From the NCBI RefSeq assembly GCF_015207825.1, contig NZ_JADEWC010000005.1, positions 62,001 through 126,000 on the forward strand: a DNA stretch of 64,000 nucleotides, in the 5' to 3' direction. The number at the start of each line of letters is the position of its first letter. Within the stretch, counting starts at the first letter, position 1. The stretch comes from Cyanobacterium stanieri LEGE 03274. GTDB lineage: Bacteria; Cyanobacteriota; Cyanobacteriia; Cyanobacteriales; Cyanobacteriaceae. The position numbers were made by a program, and so were the translations under genes. This document shows positions 14,897 to 50,218 of the stretch, piece after piece. The notes under the pieces were generated by a model. The model saw only the letters and a program-made list of their open reading frames with translations. It made no database searches and was not told the DNA's origin.

Positions 14897-16168
14897 GTGA
14901 GAATTAAACAAAATTTTCTTGTCTTTCTAAGTGTTTTATTTCTGTTTATCCCCTTACTGACAGGTTGTCAAAATCCTACGGGGGGAACTTCTGCCGATGG
15001 TGTTACCAAGATTACTTTTTGGCATGGTATTAATCCCCCTGAGAATCGGGAAATTTTTAATCAGTTACTGAATCAGTTTAATGAAAATAATCCCGATATA
15101 GAAGTAGAAAGTTTATATGTGGGGCAGCCCGATGAGCAGTTACCAAAAATTATTGCTTCGGTGGTGGGTAATCAACCCCCTGATATATTATGGTATGTTC
15201 CCCAATTAACAGGAAAGCTAGTGGATTTGGGGGCTATTAAGCCTTTAACCCAATGGTTTGATAGTTTGACCATAAAGAATGAAATTGAACCCGCTATGGT
15301 TGCTACCATGAGCTTAGGGGATGAAATTTGGTCTGTACCTTTTGCCACTAATAATACGGCGATGTTTTATCGACCTAGTTTATTTGAGGAAGCGGGAATT
15401 GATGAGTTACCTTCTAGTTGGGATGAGTTTGTAGAGGTGGCAGGTCGTCTAACAAAAGATGATAATAGTCAACATGGGATGTTGTTATCATCAGGCAAAG
15501 GGGAATTTACGGTTTTTGTCTGGTTGCCTTTTATTTACGGGGCTGATGGTTTTATTGTGGAAAATGATCAACCTAATTTGGTAAATGAGGGGGCGCAAAG
15601 GGCGTTAAGTTTAGGGGCTGATTTGGTTAATAGTAATTATGCGGTATTATCTGCTCCTGATCGTGGTTATGAGTTAGACGATTTTATTAGTGGTAGAGTG
15701 GCAATGCAAATTACTGGGCCTTGGACTTTGGCTCAGTTGAAACAAAGTGCGATCGATTATGGTGTTTTTCCTCTACCTATTGTTGATAAACCTGCCACGG
15801 TGTTGGGGGGAGAAAATTTGTTTGTGTTTAAGACTAATCCTGAGAGGGAGGAGGCTTCTTTACGATTTTTAGAGTATATTTTAGGGGAAGAGTTTCAACG
15901 GCAATGGGCTTTACAGACTGGTTATTTACCCATTAATCGCTTAGTGAAAGATAGTGCTGAGTATCAAAGTTTTGTGGCGGAAAATCCTGTTTTAGAAGTG
16001 TTTTTGTCACAGATGGACAATGCTTATACTCGTCCTATTATTGCTGATTATCCTACTATTTCTGAAAATTTGGGAAGGGCGATCGAATCTACTTTGTTAG
16101 GTCAAAAATCGGCCGCAGATGCCCTCGAGGAATCTCAGAAAAGAATTAATTTATCTATCGGAAATTAA
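14897..16168 (+). CDS. ABC-type sugar-binding lipoprotein (family 1 solute-binding protein)
   Basis: 423 residues from a GTG. A lipoprotein signal peptide ends at LLTG-C24. The mature part begins with VTKITFWHGINPPE and contains the solute-binding signature LPSSWDEFVEVAGRLTKDD, like maltose and glycerol-phosphate binding proteins. It would capture an oligosaccharide or polyol in the periplasm for an ABC importer. No permease or ATPase gene is adjacent, so the partner must be encoded elsewhere. The ligand cannot be read from sequence. Confidence 0.88.
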   Translation: MRIKQNFLVFLSVLFLFIPLLTGCQNPTGGTSADGVTKITFWHGINPPENREIFNQLLNQFNENNPDIEVESLYVGQPDEQLPKIIASVVGNQPPDILWYVPQLTGKLVDLGAIKPLTQWFDSLTIKNEIEPAMVATMSLGDEIWSVPFATNNTAMFYRPSLFEEAGIDELPSSWDEFVEVAGRLTKDDNSQHGMLLSSGKGEFTVFVWLPFIYGADGFIVENDQPNLVNEGAQRALSLGADLVNSNYAVLSAPDRGYELDDFISGRVAMQITGPWTLAQLKQSAIDYGVFPLPIVDKPATVLGGENLFVFKTNPEREEASLRFLEYILGEEFQRQWALQTGYLPINRLVKDSAEYQSFVAENPVLEVFLSQMDNAYTRPIIADYPTISENLGRAIESTLLGQKSAADALEESQKRINLSIGN

Positions 16169-42733: not shown

Positions 42734-44437
42734 ATGCTTAGGAAAAAAAGAATTATCAGTTTTCTTTGTATTTCATCTCTCATAGGCCTTATCAGCTGTG
42801 AGTCTATGCCCAACGAAGTCAACAACAATCAGGGTATTCCCATCAGATTTTTAGCAGGAAGCGACTTAAAACAATTTTGCGAAGTATCCGCCGAAAAACT
42901 TAACGCCACCAAACCCCAATTGAGTAGCGGAGAAAGATATTATCTAGTGTGCGACATTAAAGGAAGCGGAGATGTATTTCAAGAAGTAGTATCACTTTCT
43001 CAACAACTAGCCAACGGCTCTACTTCGCCCGATGATGAGAGATTTCCTAGCCTTATTTCCTTCGACGGCCCTATCTATCAAAATCAACTAATTTACGAAA
43101 TCGATAAAATATTTCCAGGACAAAACTACATTCCCCCCATTACCGATTCTCCCCTGTTGGTGTATAGCCCCATGGTGTTTATGACCACCACCGAATTAGC
43201 ACCAGCCTTGGCCAAAGCTCCAAATTTATATACCGTATTACAACAATATGATAACTATCAGCAACTAGACTCGAGCGCCCTTCCCCTACCCATACACTTT
43301 GTACAAACCGCCCCCACCCGCTCTAATTCAGGACTACAAACCCTTGTGGCACAATTTGCTTCCGTTGCCAACAAACCCCCCGAAGATTTAACCATCGCCG
43401 ACATAGAAGCCCATCAAGAGGAAGTGAGGGAGATTCAGCAAAAAGTTACCCGTTACGGAATTTCCACTGGCTCTCTCGCTCAATCCATGGTGGAAAATGG
43501 CGTATTTTGGGCTTCCGTTGGTTCGGTTTATGAGTCTTTGGTTATTGCCGCCAACAGTCAAGGGGATAACAGCCAAAAATATCAAGCGGTATATCCCCAA
43601 TCCACTTTCAGTTCTGATATTCGCTCCATTTTGCCCAATGCCCCTTGGGTTACGCCCCAAGAAAAAGAAGCTAGTGAAGCCATCATCGAATTTATGCGTC
43701 AACCAGAGATTCAGGCGATCGCCGTTAGCCTAGGATTACGCCCTGGGGTGCCTGGAGTACCATTGGGAAACAAATTTAGTGCCGAATTTGGAGTAAATCC
43801 AAACCCCACCTACGAATCCTATCGTCCTCCTCAGCCCGAAGTGGTAGAAGTGATGTTAGAAAGTTGGCAAAACTATGCCAAAAAACCCTCCCTAGTGGCG
43901 GTGGTGGTAGATATTTCTGGCTCCATGCAGGGAACTAAATTTAGTTCTGTTCAAAATACCTTACTTAGTTATATCAACAATCTGGGTAGCAAAGAAGAAA
44001 TCGTAATCATCCCCTTTAATAGTGAAATAGGGCAACCCTTGCGAGTTAGTAGCTCACCAGAAGATAAATTCAGAGCCATTAACTATATTTCTTCCTTACA
44101 GGCAGGGGGAGGTACAAGACTATACGACAGCGCCCTTTTTGCTCGTAATTGGTTGAGAGAAAATCTCAAAGATGAAGCCATTAACGCAGTGTTAATTTTA
44201 ACCGATGGGGAAGATTCAGGCTCACAGGTGAACCTATCACAATTAGAACAGGAATTACAAAAAAGCGGTTTTAATAGTGATGAAAGGATTGCTTTTTTTA
44301 CCATTGGTTATGGTAATGAAGGAGAATTTAGCCCTGATATTCTACAAGAAATTGCCCAGATAAATGGCGGTTATTATCGTAAAGGAGATCCCGAAACCAT
44401 TGCCCAAGTTATGGAAAATTTACAAGTAGAATTTTAA
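42734..44437 (+). CDS. Lipoprotein fusing a substrate-binding domain to a von Willebrand A domain
   Basis: 567 residues. Lipobox ending at Cys22 (GLISC). Residues about 35-350 form a type 2 periplasmic-binding fold with the ligand-loop-like PTRSNSG (194-200). Residues about 385-565 are a vWA domain with an intact MIDAS: DISGS (393-397), Thr461 in GGGTRLYDS and Asp491 in LILTDGEDSG. Such proteins are annotated elsewhere as substrate-binding and VWA domain proteins; function unknown. It would face the periplasm. It heads a three-gene plus-strand set (to 46492). Confidence 0.85.
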   Translation: MLRKKRIISFLCISSLIGLISCESMPNEVNNNQGIPIRFLAGSDLKQFCEVSAEKLNATKPQLSSGERYYLVCDIKGSGDVFQEVVSLSQQLANGSTSPDDERFPSLISFDGPIYQNQLIYEIDKIFPGQNYIPPITDSPLLVYSPMVFMTTTELAPALAKAPNLYTVLQQYDNYQQLDSSALPLPIHFVQTAPTRSNSGLQTLVAQFASVANKPPEDLTIADIEAHQEEVREIQQKVTRYGISTGSLAQSMVENGVFWASVGSVYESLVIAANSQGDNSQKYQAVYPQSTFSSDIRSILPNAPWVTPQEKEASEAIIEFMRQPEIQAIAVSLGLRPGVPGVPLGNKFSAEFGVNPNPTYESYRPPQPEVVEVMLESWQNYAKKPSLVAVVVDISGSMQGTKFSSVQNTLLSYINNLGSKEEIVIIPFNSEIGQPLRVSSSPEDKFRAINYISSLQAGGGTRLYDSALFARNWLRENLKDEAINAVLILTDGEDSGSQVNLSQLEQELQKSGFNSDERIAFFTIGYGNEGEFSPDILQEIAQINGGYYRKGDPETIAQVMENLQVEF

Positions 44438-44460
44438 TACTTTTATCTATCTAAAAATCT

Positions 44461-45177
44461 ATGAAAATAGTTAATCCTCTTAATTATCCTTTGGCAGTTT
44501 TATTTGCTTGTATTTGTTTAGTTTTTGGGGCAAGGGCGATAAAACTTTCTCCTTGGTTAATGTTGCCCATCACGGGAGCTATTTCTTTTGTCGGGGCTGA
44601 TTATCTAGCCAAAAAAGAACCACCCAAAGTTAATTTAAATAACCCTATTTTAGAACAAGAATTAAATAATGCTAAAATCCAAGCAAAATTATTAATTAGT
44701 AAGGCAGAACATTTAAGAATTGAAGCCCAAAAACTATTACAACATTCTTCCCAAATGGAATTATTAACCGCCGTAGAATATACTTGCCAGCGCACCTTAG
44801 AACTACCAGAAAAAATAAATCATTTAACCCAAAAATTAGCGGGGGGAGATTCTTTATTATCTAGGGAAGAATTAAATAAACAACTTCAACAAGTAAAAAG
44901 CCAACAAAAAAATAGTAAAGGAAGGGCTTTAATACAATTACAACAATTAGAAAATACCCTAAAAAATAATTTACAGTTGGTAGAAGAAGGACAAGACGCA
45001 AGGGAAGCTCAAGTTTTTTCTATCGTCACTATTATTACTGAATTTGCAGGGGTTTTACAGCAATTACAAAATAAATTAAGGTCTGCTAATTTAGATAATT
45101 CGGAAGAAATACAAGAATTAAAAGATTTAAATAATGAATTAAATAATTTTCAAGAAAGTATGGATGTATTGGTATAA
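44461..45177 (+). CDS. Membrane-anchored coiled-coil protein
   Basis: 238 residues, 23 bases after the vWA gene. Two short hydrophobic helices at the N-terminus (YPLAVLFACICLVFGARAIK and SPWLMLPITGAISFVGADYL) form a hairpin in the membrane. The rest is almost entirely heptad-rich helix (IQAKLLISKAEHLRIEAQKL, QQLKQ-type repeats to the end) and probably cytoplasmic. No enzyme motif. Co-transcription with the vWA gene suggests a structural or signalling partner. Confidence 0.7.
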   Translation: MKIVNPLNYPLAVLFACICLVFGARAIKLSPWLMLPITGAISFVGADYLAKKEPPKVNLNNPILEQELNNAKIQAKLLISKAEHLRIEAQKLLQHSSQMELLTAVEYTCQRTLELPEKINHLTQKLAGGDSLLSREELNKQLQQVKSQQKNSKGRALIQLQQLENTLKNNLQLVEEGQDAREAQVFSIVTIITEFAGVLQQLQNKLRSANLDNSEEIQELKDLNNELNNFQESMDVLV

Positions 45178-45206
45178 GTAAGTAGACATAATTAAATGGA
45201 TTTAGG

Positions 45207-45226
45207 CAAGGGGTTTAAACCCCTTG
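45207..45226. repeat. 20-base perfect palindrome, dispersed family
   Basis: CAAGGGGTTTAAACCCCTTG, followed by TTCATAAG. The same context with one change in the centre occurs at 13321-13345. It may act as terminator of the two upstream genes. Downstream (45312-45350) a GCCCTTAGCCCCCTTTAAAA fragment is another familiar cyanobacterial intergenic repeat. Confidence 0.6.
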
Positions 45227-45406
45227 TTCATAAGAGTCTTAATAAAATAAGAGCTATAATTAATTTCGCCAATTTACTTAAATTTTTTTGATTAAATTTT
45301 GAGTCATGAAAATACGATCGCCCTTAGCCCCCTTTAAAAAGGGATAACTTAATTTAACAATCTGACAAATAATTCAGGACTGCTATATATAATTAGGTAA
45401 AAAGTT

Positions 45407-46492
45407 ATGAATAAAAAGATTATTTCCAGCGCCCTTATAACCATATCTACCATCATCGCCTATGCACCATTACCCAATCAAAATAAAACTTTAAATGTGA
45501 TCATTGGTTCAGAATTACAAGAACCTTTAGCAGAAATAGAACAAACTTTTGAGCAAAATTATCCCGATATTCAAATAAACTTAAAAATTCAAGGATCTCA
45601 AGATATTATTAATAATATTATTAATCAAAAAAATGATTTTCAACCAGCTATTATTATTCCTGCTAGTGATGAATTAATTAGTGAATTAGAGACAAGATTA
45701 AGGGCGATCGGGCAAGAAAAACCATTTTATAATAATCCTCAACCCATTGCTAAAACTCTCTTAGTGGCGATCGCATGGCAAGAAAGGGGAAACATTTTAT
45801 TTCCTAACGATCAATTTAATTGGCGACAACTAGAACAAGCATTAATAAGCAAAAATTGGCAAGATATAGGAGGTAATAATGACTGGGGAAGTTTTGATCT
45901 TCTTATGACAGATCCCACCCGTTCTAATAGTGGACAATTAACCCTTAATTTATGGGCAGAAAATAAACTAAATCAGAATAATTTAGGCATTAATAATCTT
46001 ACTAATACTGAAGTAGAGCAACTTTTTTCTTTACTTAAAAACTCCGTATATCAACCACCAAGATCCACTGATATTTTACTACAAGAATTTATTGTCAGAG
46101 GGGAAAATGATGCTGATGTTGGTCTAGTTTACGAAAGCATTGCCTTATATCGCTGGTCACAAACAAATCAAAATAAAGTGTATCAAATTTATTATCCCAA
46201 TCCAACCATCGAAACTTTTTCCACCGCCGTAATTCTGAATAATAACTTAAACAAAACTGAACAAAAATCAGCAGAAAAATTTATAGATTATCTATTAGCG
46301 GAAAATCAACAAATTATTCTAGCAAAATATGGTTTTAGACCCATAAATGATAACATTAATTTAACAACCATTAATGATACCCCTTGGAGTAATAATATTC
46401 TTGGTATGGAAATAAATCCCCCCGTAGAAATTAAACCTTCCCCTTCCCCTGAAATTATTAATGAAATTCAAAAAGTATGGCTCAGAAACTAA
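45407..46492 (+). CDS. Periplasmic substrate-binding-like protein, partner of the vWA lipoprotein
   Basis: 361 residues. An N-terminal hydrophobic signal (IISSALITISTIIAYAPLP) is followed by a type 2 periplasmic-binding fold: TLNVIIGSELQEPLAEIEQT, the shared PTRSNSG (170-176) and VGLVYESIALYRW, which parallels VGSVYESLVIAAN of the vWA protein. It thus looks like a stand-alone paralogue of the vWA protein's N-terminal domain. No ABC permease is nearby, so transport is unlikely to be its only role. The ligand is unknown. Confidence 0.75.
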   Translation: MNKKIISSALITISTIIAYAPLPNQNKTLNVIIGSELQEPLAEIEQTFEQNYPDIQINLKIQGSQDIINNIINQKNDFQPAIIIPASDELISELETRLRAIGQEKPFYNNPQPIAKTLLVAIAWQERGNILFPNDQFNWRQLEQALISKNWQDIGGNNDWGSFDLLMTDPTRSNSGQLTLNLWAENKLNQNNLGINNLTNTEVEQLFSLLKNSVYQPPRSTDILLQEFIVRGENDADVGLVYESIALYRWSQTNQNKVYQIYYPNPTIETFSTAVILNNNLNKTEQKSAEKFIDYLLAENQQIILAKYGFRPINDNINLTTINDTPWSNNILGMEINPPVEIKPSPSPEIINEIQKVWLRN

Positions 46493-49042: not shown

Positions 49043-50218
49043 ATGACTAATTTATTAGAACAATTACGTCAATATACTATCGTGGTAGCTGATACTGGTG
49101 ATATAGGGGCGATCGAAAAATTTACCCCCCGAGATACCACCACCAATCCTTCTCTGATTACCACTGCTGCCCAGATGCCAGAATATCAAAGCATCGTTGA
49201 TGATACCCTCGTCGAAGCCAGACAGGAATTAGGGGAAAAAGCCCCTGTCGAAGAAGTTGTTAAACTAGCCATCGATTGGTTAGCCGTATCCTTCGGAACA
49301 AAAATTTTAGAAATTGTACCCGGTAGAGTCTCCACGGAAGTTGACGCCCGTTTATCCTATGATACTGAAGCCACCATTGCTAAAGCCCGTTACCTTATTT
49401 CCTTATATGAAAAGGCTGGAATTGATAGGGAGCGAGTATTGATTAAAATTGCCTCTACCTGGGAAGGAATTAGAGCCGCGGAAATCCTCGAAAAAGAAGG
49501 GATTCATTGTAATTTAACCTTGTTGTTTGGTTTCCATCAAGCGGTGGCCTGTGCAGAAGCTGGAGTTACTTTGATTTCTCCTTTTGTGGGTAGGATTCTG
49601 GATTGGTATAAAAAAAATACAGGTAAAGACTATACAGGGGCAGATGATCCGGGGGTACAGTCTGTTACTCAAATATATAACTATTATAAAAAATTTGGTT
49701 ATAAAACCGAGGTAATGGGTGCTAGTTTTCGTAATATAGGACAAATTACTGAGTTAGCAGGGTGTGATTTATTGACAATTTCCCCTCAACTGTTGCAAAA
49801 TCTGAAAAACACGGAGCAAGAATTACCTAGAAAGTTATGTCCTGAAACGGCTTCTTCTATGGAAATAGAAAAAATTACCGTGGATAAAGGGACTTTTGAT
49901 GAGATGCACGATAAAGACATCATGGCTAATGATAAGTTAGATGAAGGTATTAAAGGATTTACTAAAGCCCTAGAAACCCTTGAAAATTTACTTAGCGCCC
50001 GTTTAGCAAAAATAGAGGGTAATGATACCTTAAACCATGCGATCGAAGATATATTCCATGTTTATGATTTAGATGGCGATGGCTTTATCAGTAGAGAAGA
50101 ATGGGCTGGGGCTGACGCTGTATTTGATGCCATGGATGTTAACCATGATGGTAAAATTTCCCCTGAGGAGATGGCCTCAAGTCTGGGCGCTGTAGTTTAT
50201 CTTGCCAAAGCTAGTTAA
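49043..50218 (+). CDS. tal: Transaldolase with C-terminal EF-hand pair
   Basis: 391 residues. Residues 1-325 are a transaldolase of the TalB type, with the Schiff-base lysine at 135 ([10 protein letters not shown]) and the DTTTNPSLI motif (31-39). Residues 342-353 ([12 protein letters not shown]) and 365-376 ([12 protein letters not shown]) are two canonical EF-hand loops with all calcium ligands. The fusion is known from other cyanobacteria. It works in the oxidative pentose-phosphate pathway; calcium control is inference. GGAGGA lies nine bases before the ATG. Confidence 0.95.

What the first reader, a model, noticed from the sequence alone, without database searches (positions are those of the whole stretch)
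42734..46492. Three-gene envelope system: SBP-vWA lipoprotein, membrane coiled coil, and SBP paralogue
Seen: a lipoprotein with a periplasmic-binding fold fused to a vWA domain with complete MIDAS (DISGS, Thr461, Asp491), a membrane-hairpin coiled-coil protein 23 bases later, and a second binding protein sharing PTRSNSG and VYES motifs with the first. No permease or ATPase is present. Inference: a non-transport role, for example ligand sensing or envelope assembly in which ligand state in one domain gates metal-dependent adhesion of the other, with the coiled coil as cytoplasmic reader. I know of no described function for this set. Related SBP-vWA proteins are known in actinobacteria.
Basis: partly seen in the sequence, partly recalled or inferred. 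Interest (0 to 1): 0.72.

Follow-up and report, generated by a model that had tools for sequence, protein, structure and literature searches.

The report
Three-gene cyanobacterial envelope sensing cassette
Many cyanobacteria keep the same three neighbouring genes, two periplasmic ligand-binding proteins and one inner-membrane protein, with no transporter attached, and in a few species one of them is welded to a membrane quality-control protease, which suggests an undescribed system that watches over the cell envelope.

Summary
In detail: a lipoprotein with a binding-protein domain plus a vWA domain (P1), a two-helix membrane protein with a helical tail (P2) and a membrane-anchored second binding protein (P3). 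They form a dedicated set. In 194 genomes of the class, all 44 with full P1 also have P2 and P3; in 33 of 44 all three are adjacent on one strand. Six genomes of one family have them scattered yet keep all three. P2 and P3 are one protein in three genomes of another family, and P3 is fused to an HtpX-type protease in Microcystis wesenbergii and Lyngbya aestuarii. Relatives of P1 and P3 in Nonomuraea, Variovorax and Sphaerotilus share an operon with TelA and another hairpin protein. No ABC ATPase was seen inside the cassette. I read it as an ABC-independent envelope module: periplasmic sensing by P3 and P1, coupled through P2 to membrane quality control. Partnership and topology rest on fusions; ligand, metal gating and stress role are inferred. 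TelA is missing in cyanobacteria, and P2 is not detectably related to the other hairpin proteins.

The parts
42734..44437 (+). P1: lipoprotein, class II solute-binding domain (about residues 34-385) followed by a vWA domain (about 386-567) with complete MIDAS
   Evidence: (model pLDDT 87.0, pTM 0.82)
44461..45177 (+). P2: inner-membrane hairpin (two helices) followed by a helical, probably cytoplasmic domain
   Evidence: orientation inferred from natural P2-P3 fusions
45407..46492 (+). P3: N-terminal membrane anchor followed by a periplasmic class II solute-binding domain, paralogue of the P1 binding domain
43310..43333 (+). codons of P1 residues 193-200 (APTRSNSG), at the start of a helix, presumed ligand site
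   Evidence: S197, S199, G200 in 48 of 48 rows; helix from residue 198 in the model
45914..45934 (+). codons of P3 residues 170-176 (PTRSNSG)
   Evidence: R172 to G176 in 19 of 19 rows, P170 in 18 of 19

Best explanation
A dedicated, ABC-independent envelope module. P3 is held in the inner membrane by one N-terminal helix with its solute-binding domain in the periplasm; P2 is an inner-membrane hairpin whose helical domain lies in the cytoplasm; P2 and P3 work as one unit. P1 is the periplasmic lipoprotein partner, with a second binding domain of the same family and a metal-binding vWA domain. Most likely the two binding domains report a small, probably anionic, periplasmic ligand or envelope state; the vWA domain makes a metal-dependent contact with a partner; and the signal passes through P2 (through a fused HtpX protease in two species, and in other phyla alongside TelA and another hairpin protein) to membrane-protein quality control or envelope-stress protection. 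Shown by sequence: the three genes, their conservation as a set, the fusions, the TelA context of relatives. Inferred: topology, complex formation, ligand class, metal gating, stress role.
For: (1) Co-occurrence: of 194 class genomes, 44 have full P1 (best E 1e-90 or better), 46 P2 (E 1e-15 or better), 46 P3 (E 1e-40 or better); all 44 have all three (Fisher about 1e-41, not corrected for relatedness). (2) Order: all three adjacent on one strand in 33 of 44; 58 of 68 named loci with at least 3.6 kb downstream have P1-P2-P3; median gaps 18 and 59 bases in 61 loci. (3) Six genomes of family f26 have the genes scattered and still keep all three. (4) P2-P3 fusion in three genomes of family f23 (L068, L082, L083), two of which are the named loci L179 and L181; the fused protein keeps a charged and hydrophobic segment between the P2 tail and the binding domain, which puts the tail in the cytoplasm. 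(5) M48 peptidase fused to the N-terminus of P3 in L108 and L158 (E 2.7e-33, 2.3e-32; HtpX models E 5e-84 and 7e-90 but below their cut-offs); an HtpX-like piece follows P1-P2 in L116. (6) P1 and P3 relatives in an operon with TelA in Nonomuraea, Variovorax, Sphaerotilus; profile matches P1 E 3e-29, P3 E 7e-11. (7) XpaC-like and telA1 genes rise 10.3- and 3.4-fold on membrane-protein overproduction in Lactococcus, and growth of the double deletion is partially impaired under it (passages of PMC3139573). (8) Among the closest folds of the binding domains are sulfate-, thiamin- and sugar-phosphate-binding proteins.
Against: TelA is not found in cyanobacteria (0 of 194 over cut-off, two weak sub-threshold hits in genomes without the set). 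P2 is not detectably related to the TelA-linked hairpin proteins (probability 0.2%), to the Miltoncostaea one (3%) or to TelA (0.2%). So the stress link rests on the context of P1/P3 relatives and on three HtpX cases. HtpX-P3 fusions are rare: 2 in 80 named loci, none visible among the 46 class genomes with P3 (open-frame lengths). Polyamine- and iron-binding proteins match the fold nearly as well (Z about 23), so the ligand class is open. In the sister genome G157 an ABC-3 permease and an ABC ATPase lie just upstream on the same strand. I found no ligand, expression or phenotype data.
Confidence: 0.45

Rival explanations
1. Envelope assembly or tethering: the P1 vWA domain makes a metal-dependent contact across the periplasm with P3/P2 or the wall, and the binding domains recognise a wall or polysaccharide building block; the set builds or holds envelope structure rather than signalling stress.
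For: vWA with complete MIDAS in nearly all rows; nearest vWA folds include extracellular matrix-type domains, the inter-alpha-inhibitor heavy chains; P3 lies beside an FtsW/RodA-type gene in genome G016.
Against: HtpX fusions and the TelA context fit quality control better; few flanking gene families are shared between the 40 mapped loci (most flanking genes were not annotated).
Confidence: 0.22
2. Orphan uptake receptors: P1 and P3 deliver a solute to an ABC permease encoded elsewhere.
For: Both binding domains have the fold of ABC receptors; an ABC-3 permease and ATPase lie upstream in sister genome G157.
Against: ABC-ATPase motif scan: 1 of 80 named loci and 3 of 41 others (overlapping samples), none inside the cassette (permeases not scanned); P1 carries a vWA domain and P3 can be fused to P2 or to HtpX; ABC-3 permeases use another receptor class (recalled).
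Confidence: 0.08
3. Part of a conflict or defence system.
For: A related vWA protein in Streptomyces sp. CdTB01 follows a Trypco1 and an nSTAND1-WD40 gene.
Against: No PADLOC model matches P1 or P2; P3 has one 14-bit hit, E 0.006. P1 has no match in 50,697 phage records. The P1 tree roughly follows taxonomy by eye.
Confidence: 0.05
4. Unrelated genes that happen to be neighbours.
For: Flanking genes differ between genomes and the set is patchy: 44 of 194.
Against: 44 of 44 co-occurrence, scattered genes included, and two kinds of fusion.
Confidence: 0.01

Closest known systems
TelA/XpaC envelope-stress pair (Lactococcus llmg_1115/telA1, Listeria lmo1966-1967)
   Same: Relatives of P1 and P3 share an operon with TelA plus a hairpin protein in Nonomuraea, Variovorax and Sphaerotilus; P2 has the layout that I recall for XpaC-type proteins
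   Different: No TelA over cut-off in 194 cyanobacterial genomes; no sequence match of P2 to XpaC, to the TelA-linked hairpin proteins or to TelA; the published pairs, as recalled, lack the two binding proteins
'Substrate-binding and VWA domain-containing protein' (product name in Streptomyces and Variovorax records)
   Same: Same two-domain architecture; profile match E 3e-29 between the cyanobacterial set and three TelA-type or Deinococcus members
   Different: A product name; I found no described function; partners differ by phylum
Class II solute-binding proteins (sulfate 1sbp and 5um2, thiamin 2qry, sugar phosphate AfuA)
   Same: Fold of the P1 binding domain (Z 25-27) and of P3 (Foldseek E 4e-11 to 4e-10 for sulfate-binding proteins); VYESIAL aligned to AWENEAL of 1sbp (E 0.002)
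   Different: No cognate ABC genes in the cassette; fused to a vWA domain (P1), to P2 or to HtpX (P3)
FtsZl1/vWA membrane-remodelling system (PMC2875224)
   Same: vWA proteins, membrane association, found in cyanobacteria
   Different: PF13809 in 19 of 44 cassette genomes and 34 of 150 others, absent from the window genome; no such pair of binding proteins in the passages and section read

Membership tests
Substrate-binding and VWA domain lipoproteins (P1) | solute-binding domain followed by vWA domain in one exported protein | tested here: met
   Pfam SBP_bac_8 and VWA over cut-off, lipobox Cys in 48 of 48, profile match to TelA-type P1 E 3e-29
ABC uptake system | ABC ATPase encoded with the receptor | tested here: not met
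   motif scan: ATPase-like ORF in 1 of 80 named and 3 of 41 other loci (overlapping samples), none within the cassette; permeases not scanned; ABC-3 permease and ATPase upstream in sister genome G157
TelA/XpaC stress module | TelA (PF05816) present | tested here: not met
   0 of 194 class genomes over cut-off, 2 weak hits in genomes without the set; 3 of 14 control genomes ring
TelA/XpaC stress module | hairpin protein homologous to XpaC or to the TelA-linked hairpin proteins | tested here: inconclusive
   no PF10112 hit for P2; hhalign probability 0.2% and 3%; short helical proteins can diverge beyond detection; only the layout is shared
TelA-linked SBP/SBP-vWA operon | membrane-anchored second binding protein with SNS-like and YE(S/A) motifs | tested here: met
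   P3 against the four-member outside set, E 7.3e-11, probability 97%; could reflect general binding-protein kinship
FtsZl1/vWA system | Tubulin_2 (PF13809) present with the vWA gene | tested here: not met
   absent from G000 and from 25 of 44 cassette genomes
Known anti-phage defence systems | convincing match to a PADLOC model | tested here: not met
   none for P1 and P2; P3 one 14-bit hit, E 0.0064
Oxyanion-binding class II receptors | binding of an oxyanion | not testable with these tools
   fold and motif positions only

The most novel reading that the evidence does not exclude
A new class of transmembrane envelope sensor: two paralogous periplasmic ligand-binding domains, one on a metal-dependent vWA lipoprotein, joined to an inner-membrane hairpin protein that controls membrane proteolysis or repair, with interchangeable inner-side partners (P2 in cyanobacteria, fused HtpX in some, TelA plus another hairpin protein in other phyla).
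Probability: 0.3. Interest if true: 0.8.

Novelty: new variant of a known kind. Interest (0 to 1): 0.58.

Why it matters
It would give a function to a gene set found in 44 of 194 genomes of the class sampled, would help explain why some TelA operons in other phyla come with binding proteins, and would be a transporter-free use of solute-binding domains coupled to a membrane protease. It makes a testable prediction about what such TelA-linked systems sense.

Tried and rejected
TelA as a partner in cyanobacteria: no hit over cut-off in 194 genomes. Homology of P2 with the TelA-linked hairpin proteins, the Miltoncostaea hairpin protein or TelA: not detected. FtsZl1 as a partner: only weak enrichment, 19 of 44 against 34 of 150 (Fisher 0.01), and absent from the window genome. 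Phage origin: P1 has no match at E 1e-6 in 50,697 phage records. Known defence families: nothing convincing. Promoter and terminator scans over the cassette: counts below the shuffle means, so uninformative on one or two transcripts. Literature: searches listed no paper that I recognised as describing this set; I saw listings, and opened passages of PMC11237479, PMC2875224 (also section 6), PMC4390845 (no vWA protein named in it), PMC3139573 and PMC12791056 only; the library holds open-licence papers. Rows dropped: five of the 49 genomes as fragments or weak hits (G045, G049, G057, G113, G164). My ORF map missed P3 in G006, found. A phylum draw scored at most four candidates per genome and gave 21 of 292; its listing does not show how many genomes lie outside the class.
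Full report
What is there. P1 is a 567-residue lipoprotein with a solute-binding domain and a vWA domain. P2 is 238 residues, two hydrophobic helices and a helical tail, with no Pfam or NCBIfam match over cut-off. P3 is 361 residues with an N-terminal hydrophobic anchor and a solute-binding domain. The MIDAS of P1 (D393, S395, S397, T461, D491) is kept in 47, 48, 48, 47 and 48 of 48 aligned P1 proteins, the lipobox Cys and two more cysteines (C49, C73) in 48 of 48. The SNSG and YES residues are kept in P1 (47 or 48 of 48) and in P3 (19 of 19).

A dedicated set. In 194 genomes of the class, the P1 binding domain matched 49; I count 44 as full P1 (best E 1e-90 or better) and leave out five fragments or weak hits. 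P2 was found in 46 (E 1e-15 or better) and P3 in 46 (E 1e-40 or better). All 44 have P2 and P3, although P3 of G007 is split over two reading frames and that of G119 is matched over 314 of 370 positions. The extras are G113 (P1 in pieces, P2 and P3 present), G193 (P2 alone) and G045 (fragments of P1 and P3). The Fisher value of about 1e-41 ignores relatedness. All three are adjacent on one strand in 33 of 44, P1 and P2 in 38 of 44. In six genomes of family f26 the genes are scattered and all three are kept; in three of these (G016, G035, G063) they lie on one contig with every pair at least 120 kb apart, in the other three on different contigs. In G165 and in G003, G009 and G111 P3 is on another contig, for G111 because the contig ends inside P3; in G119 P3 is beside P1 but on the other strand.

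Named loci. The genome-contig scan found 141 relatives and kept the best 80; several of these are the same contigs as in the class sample, so the two are not independent. Of 68 with at least 3.6 kb downstream of P1, 58 have P1-P2-P3, 3 P1-P2 only, 3 P1-P3 only (with a small membrane protein in the place of P2) and 4 P1 alone; of the 12 shorter loci 8 have all three, 3 P1-P2 and 1 P1 only. Median gaps are 18 bases (P1-P2) and 59 (P2-P3) in 61 loci. Few flanking gene families are shared. In the window's own genus G157 has the set (P1 98% identical), G195 keeps only a 146-position piece of P3 and no P1, and neither G194 (63% complete) nor G196 shows it. The P1 tree of 80 rows roughly follows taxonomy by eye, with second copies in Moorena, Okeania and Calothrix; 20 of 77 inner branches are unsupported.

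Fusions. The P2 tail is followed by a charged stretch, a hydrophobic segment and the binding domain, so if the binding domain is periplasmic the tail is cytoplasmic. In Microcystis wesenbergii (L108) and Lyngbya aestuarii (L158) P3 carries an N-terminal M48 peptidase with HExxH; it matches HtpX models strongly though below their curated cut-offs. L159 keeps a short remnant, and in Coleofasciculus L116 a piece of the same protease follows P1-P2. That HtpX has its active site in the cytoplasm is recalled; it gives the same topology for P3. No such fusion is visible in the class sample: the long frames are the three P2-P3 fusions and one frame (G089) that overlaps P2.

Structure. P1 was modelled from 48 sequences (pLDDT 87.0, pTM 0.82). 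Its binding domain is nearest to thiamin-, sulfate- and sugar-phosphate-binding proteins (Z 25-27), with ferric- and polyamine-binding proteins close behind (Z about 23), and its vWA domain to inter-alpha-inhibitor heavy chains (Z about 24). The natural P2-P3 fusion of L181 was modelled from 76 sequences (pLDDT 88.3, pTM 0.62): hairpin 10-50, seven helices over 57-230, a presumed membrane helix 246-263, then the binding domain, whose best matches are sulfate-binding proteins, followed among others by ferric-binding ones. The P3 profile aligns VYESIAL to AWENEAL of 1sbp (E 0.002); that this segment and the Ser-Gly helix start touch the sulfate in 1sbp is recalled. An anionic ligand is therefore an inference.

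Relatives elsewhere. tblastn of P1 in 72,556 plasmid records found 7 records; searches with two of these hits added Nonomuraea, Deinococcus and another Streptomyces. In Sphaerotilus, Variovorax and Nonomuraea the order is anchored binding protein, TelA, P1, hairpin protein; in Deinococcus the same without TelA. In Miltoncostaea and Streptomyces NBC_00564 P1 is followed by a hairpin-type protein; in Thiodictyon by a binding protein and an apparently exported protein. Profile comparison supports kinship of P1 (E 3e-29) and P3 (E 7e-11) but not of P2 (0.2% and 3%), so the hairpin proteins are alike in layout only. TelA is missing in cyanobacteria (0 of 194 over cut-off, two weak hits in genomes without the set).

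Reading. Context points to envelope stress: XpaC-like and telA1 genes rise 10.3- and 3.4-fold in Lactococcus on membrane-protein overproduction, and growth of the double deletion is partially impaired (passages of PMC3139573); a Listeria TelA disruption mutant is reported as four-fold more susceptible to nisin (passage of PMC12791056 citing Collins 2010). With an HtpX-type protease fused to P3, the most economical reading is a module in which periplasmic binding domains report a ligand or envelope state and an inner-side partner acts on membrane quality. No ABC ATPase was seen inside the cassette (ATPase-like ORFs in 1 of 80 named and 3 of 41 other loci, by motif, permeases not scanned), although sister genome G157 has an ABC-3 permease and an ATPase just upstream on the same strand. 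I give the functional reading 0.45 and the existence of a dedicated set well above 0.9. The PSP survey PMC11237479 does not contain the words TelA, vWA or HtpX in its main text (term counts), and none of my ten literature searches listed a description of this set.

Noticed in passing
L158:8500-9033, L142:5369-5950, L127:7748-8260, L152:7715-8257 and others: A small membrane protein (about 160-210 aa, LSCxxLE...CQ) lies between P2 and P3 in several cyanobacteria or takes the place of P2 (ten loci in the BLAST, one of them as part of a P3 fusion); no Pfam family in the three members searched.
   Followed up: partly
L185:1131-6834 (Streptomyces sp. CdTB01 plasmid): A Trypco1 gene, an nSTAND1-WD40 gene and a related vWA protein in a row, as in conflict systems.
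   Followed up: partly
window 45207-45226: A perfect 20-base palindrome CAAGGGGTTTAAACCCCTTG in the P2-P3 gap, read from the sequence; the gap (229 bases) is longer here than the median of 59.
   Followed up: no
L063, L068, L069, L076, L080, L083 (P3 N-termini): Several P3 proteins have twin arginines just before the hydrophobic segment, as in Tat signals; the window P3 has lysines.
   Followed up: no
window 49043-50218: Transaldolase-like ORF with two EF-hand-like calcium loops at the C-terminus, named by eye.
   Followed up: no
G195:C9:6054-6491: A same-genus genome keeps only a 146-position piece of P3 and no P1, suggesting loss of the set.
   Followed up: partly
window 14897-16168: A lipoprotein-like ORF that looks like a sugar-type solute-binding protein, named by eye; its neighbours were not examined.
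   Followed up: no
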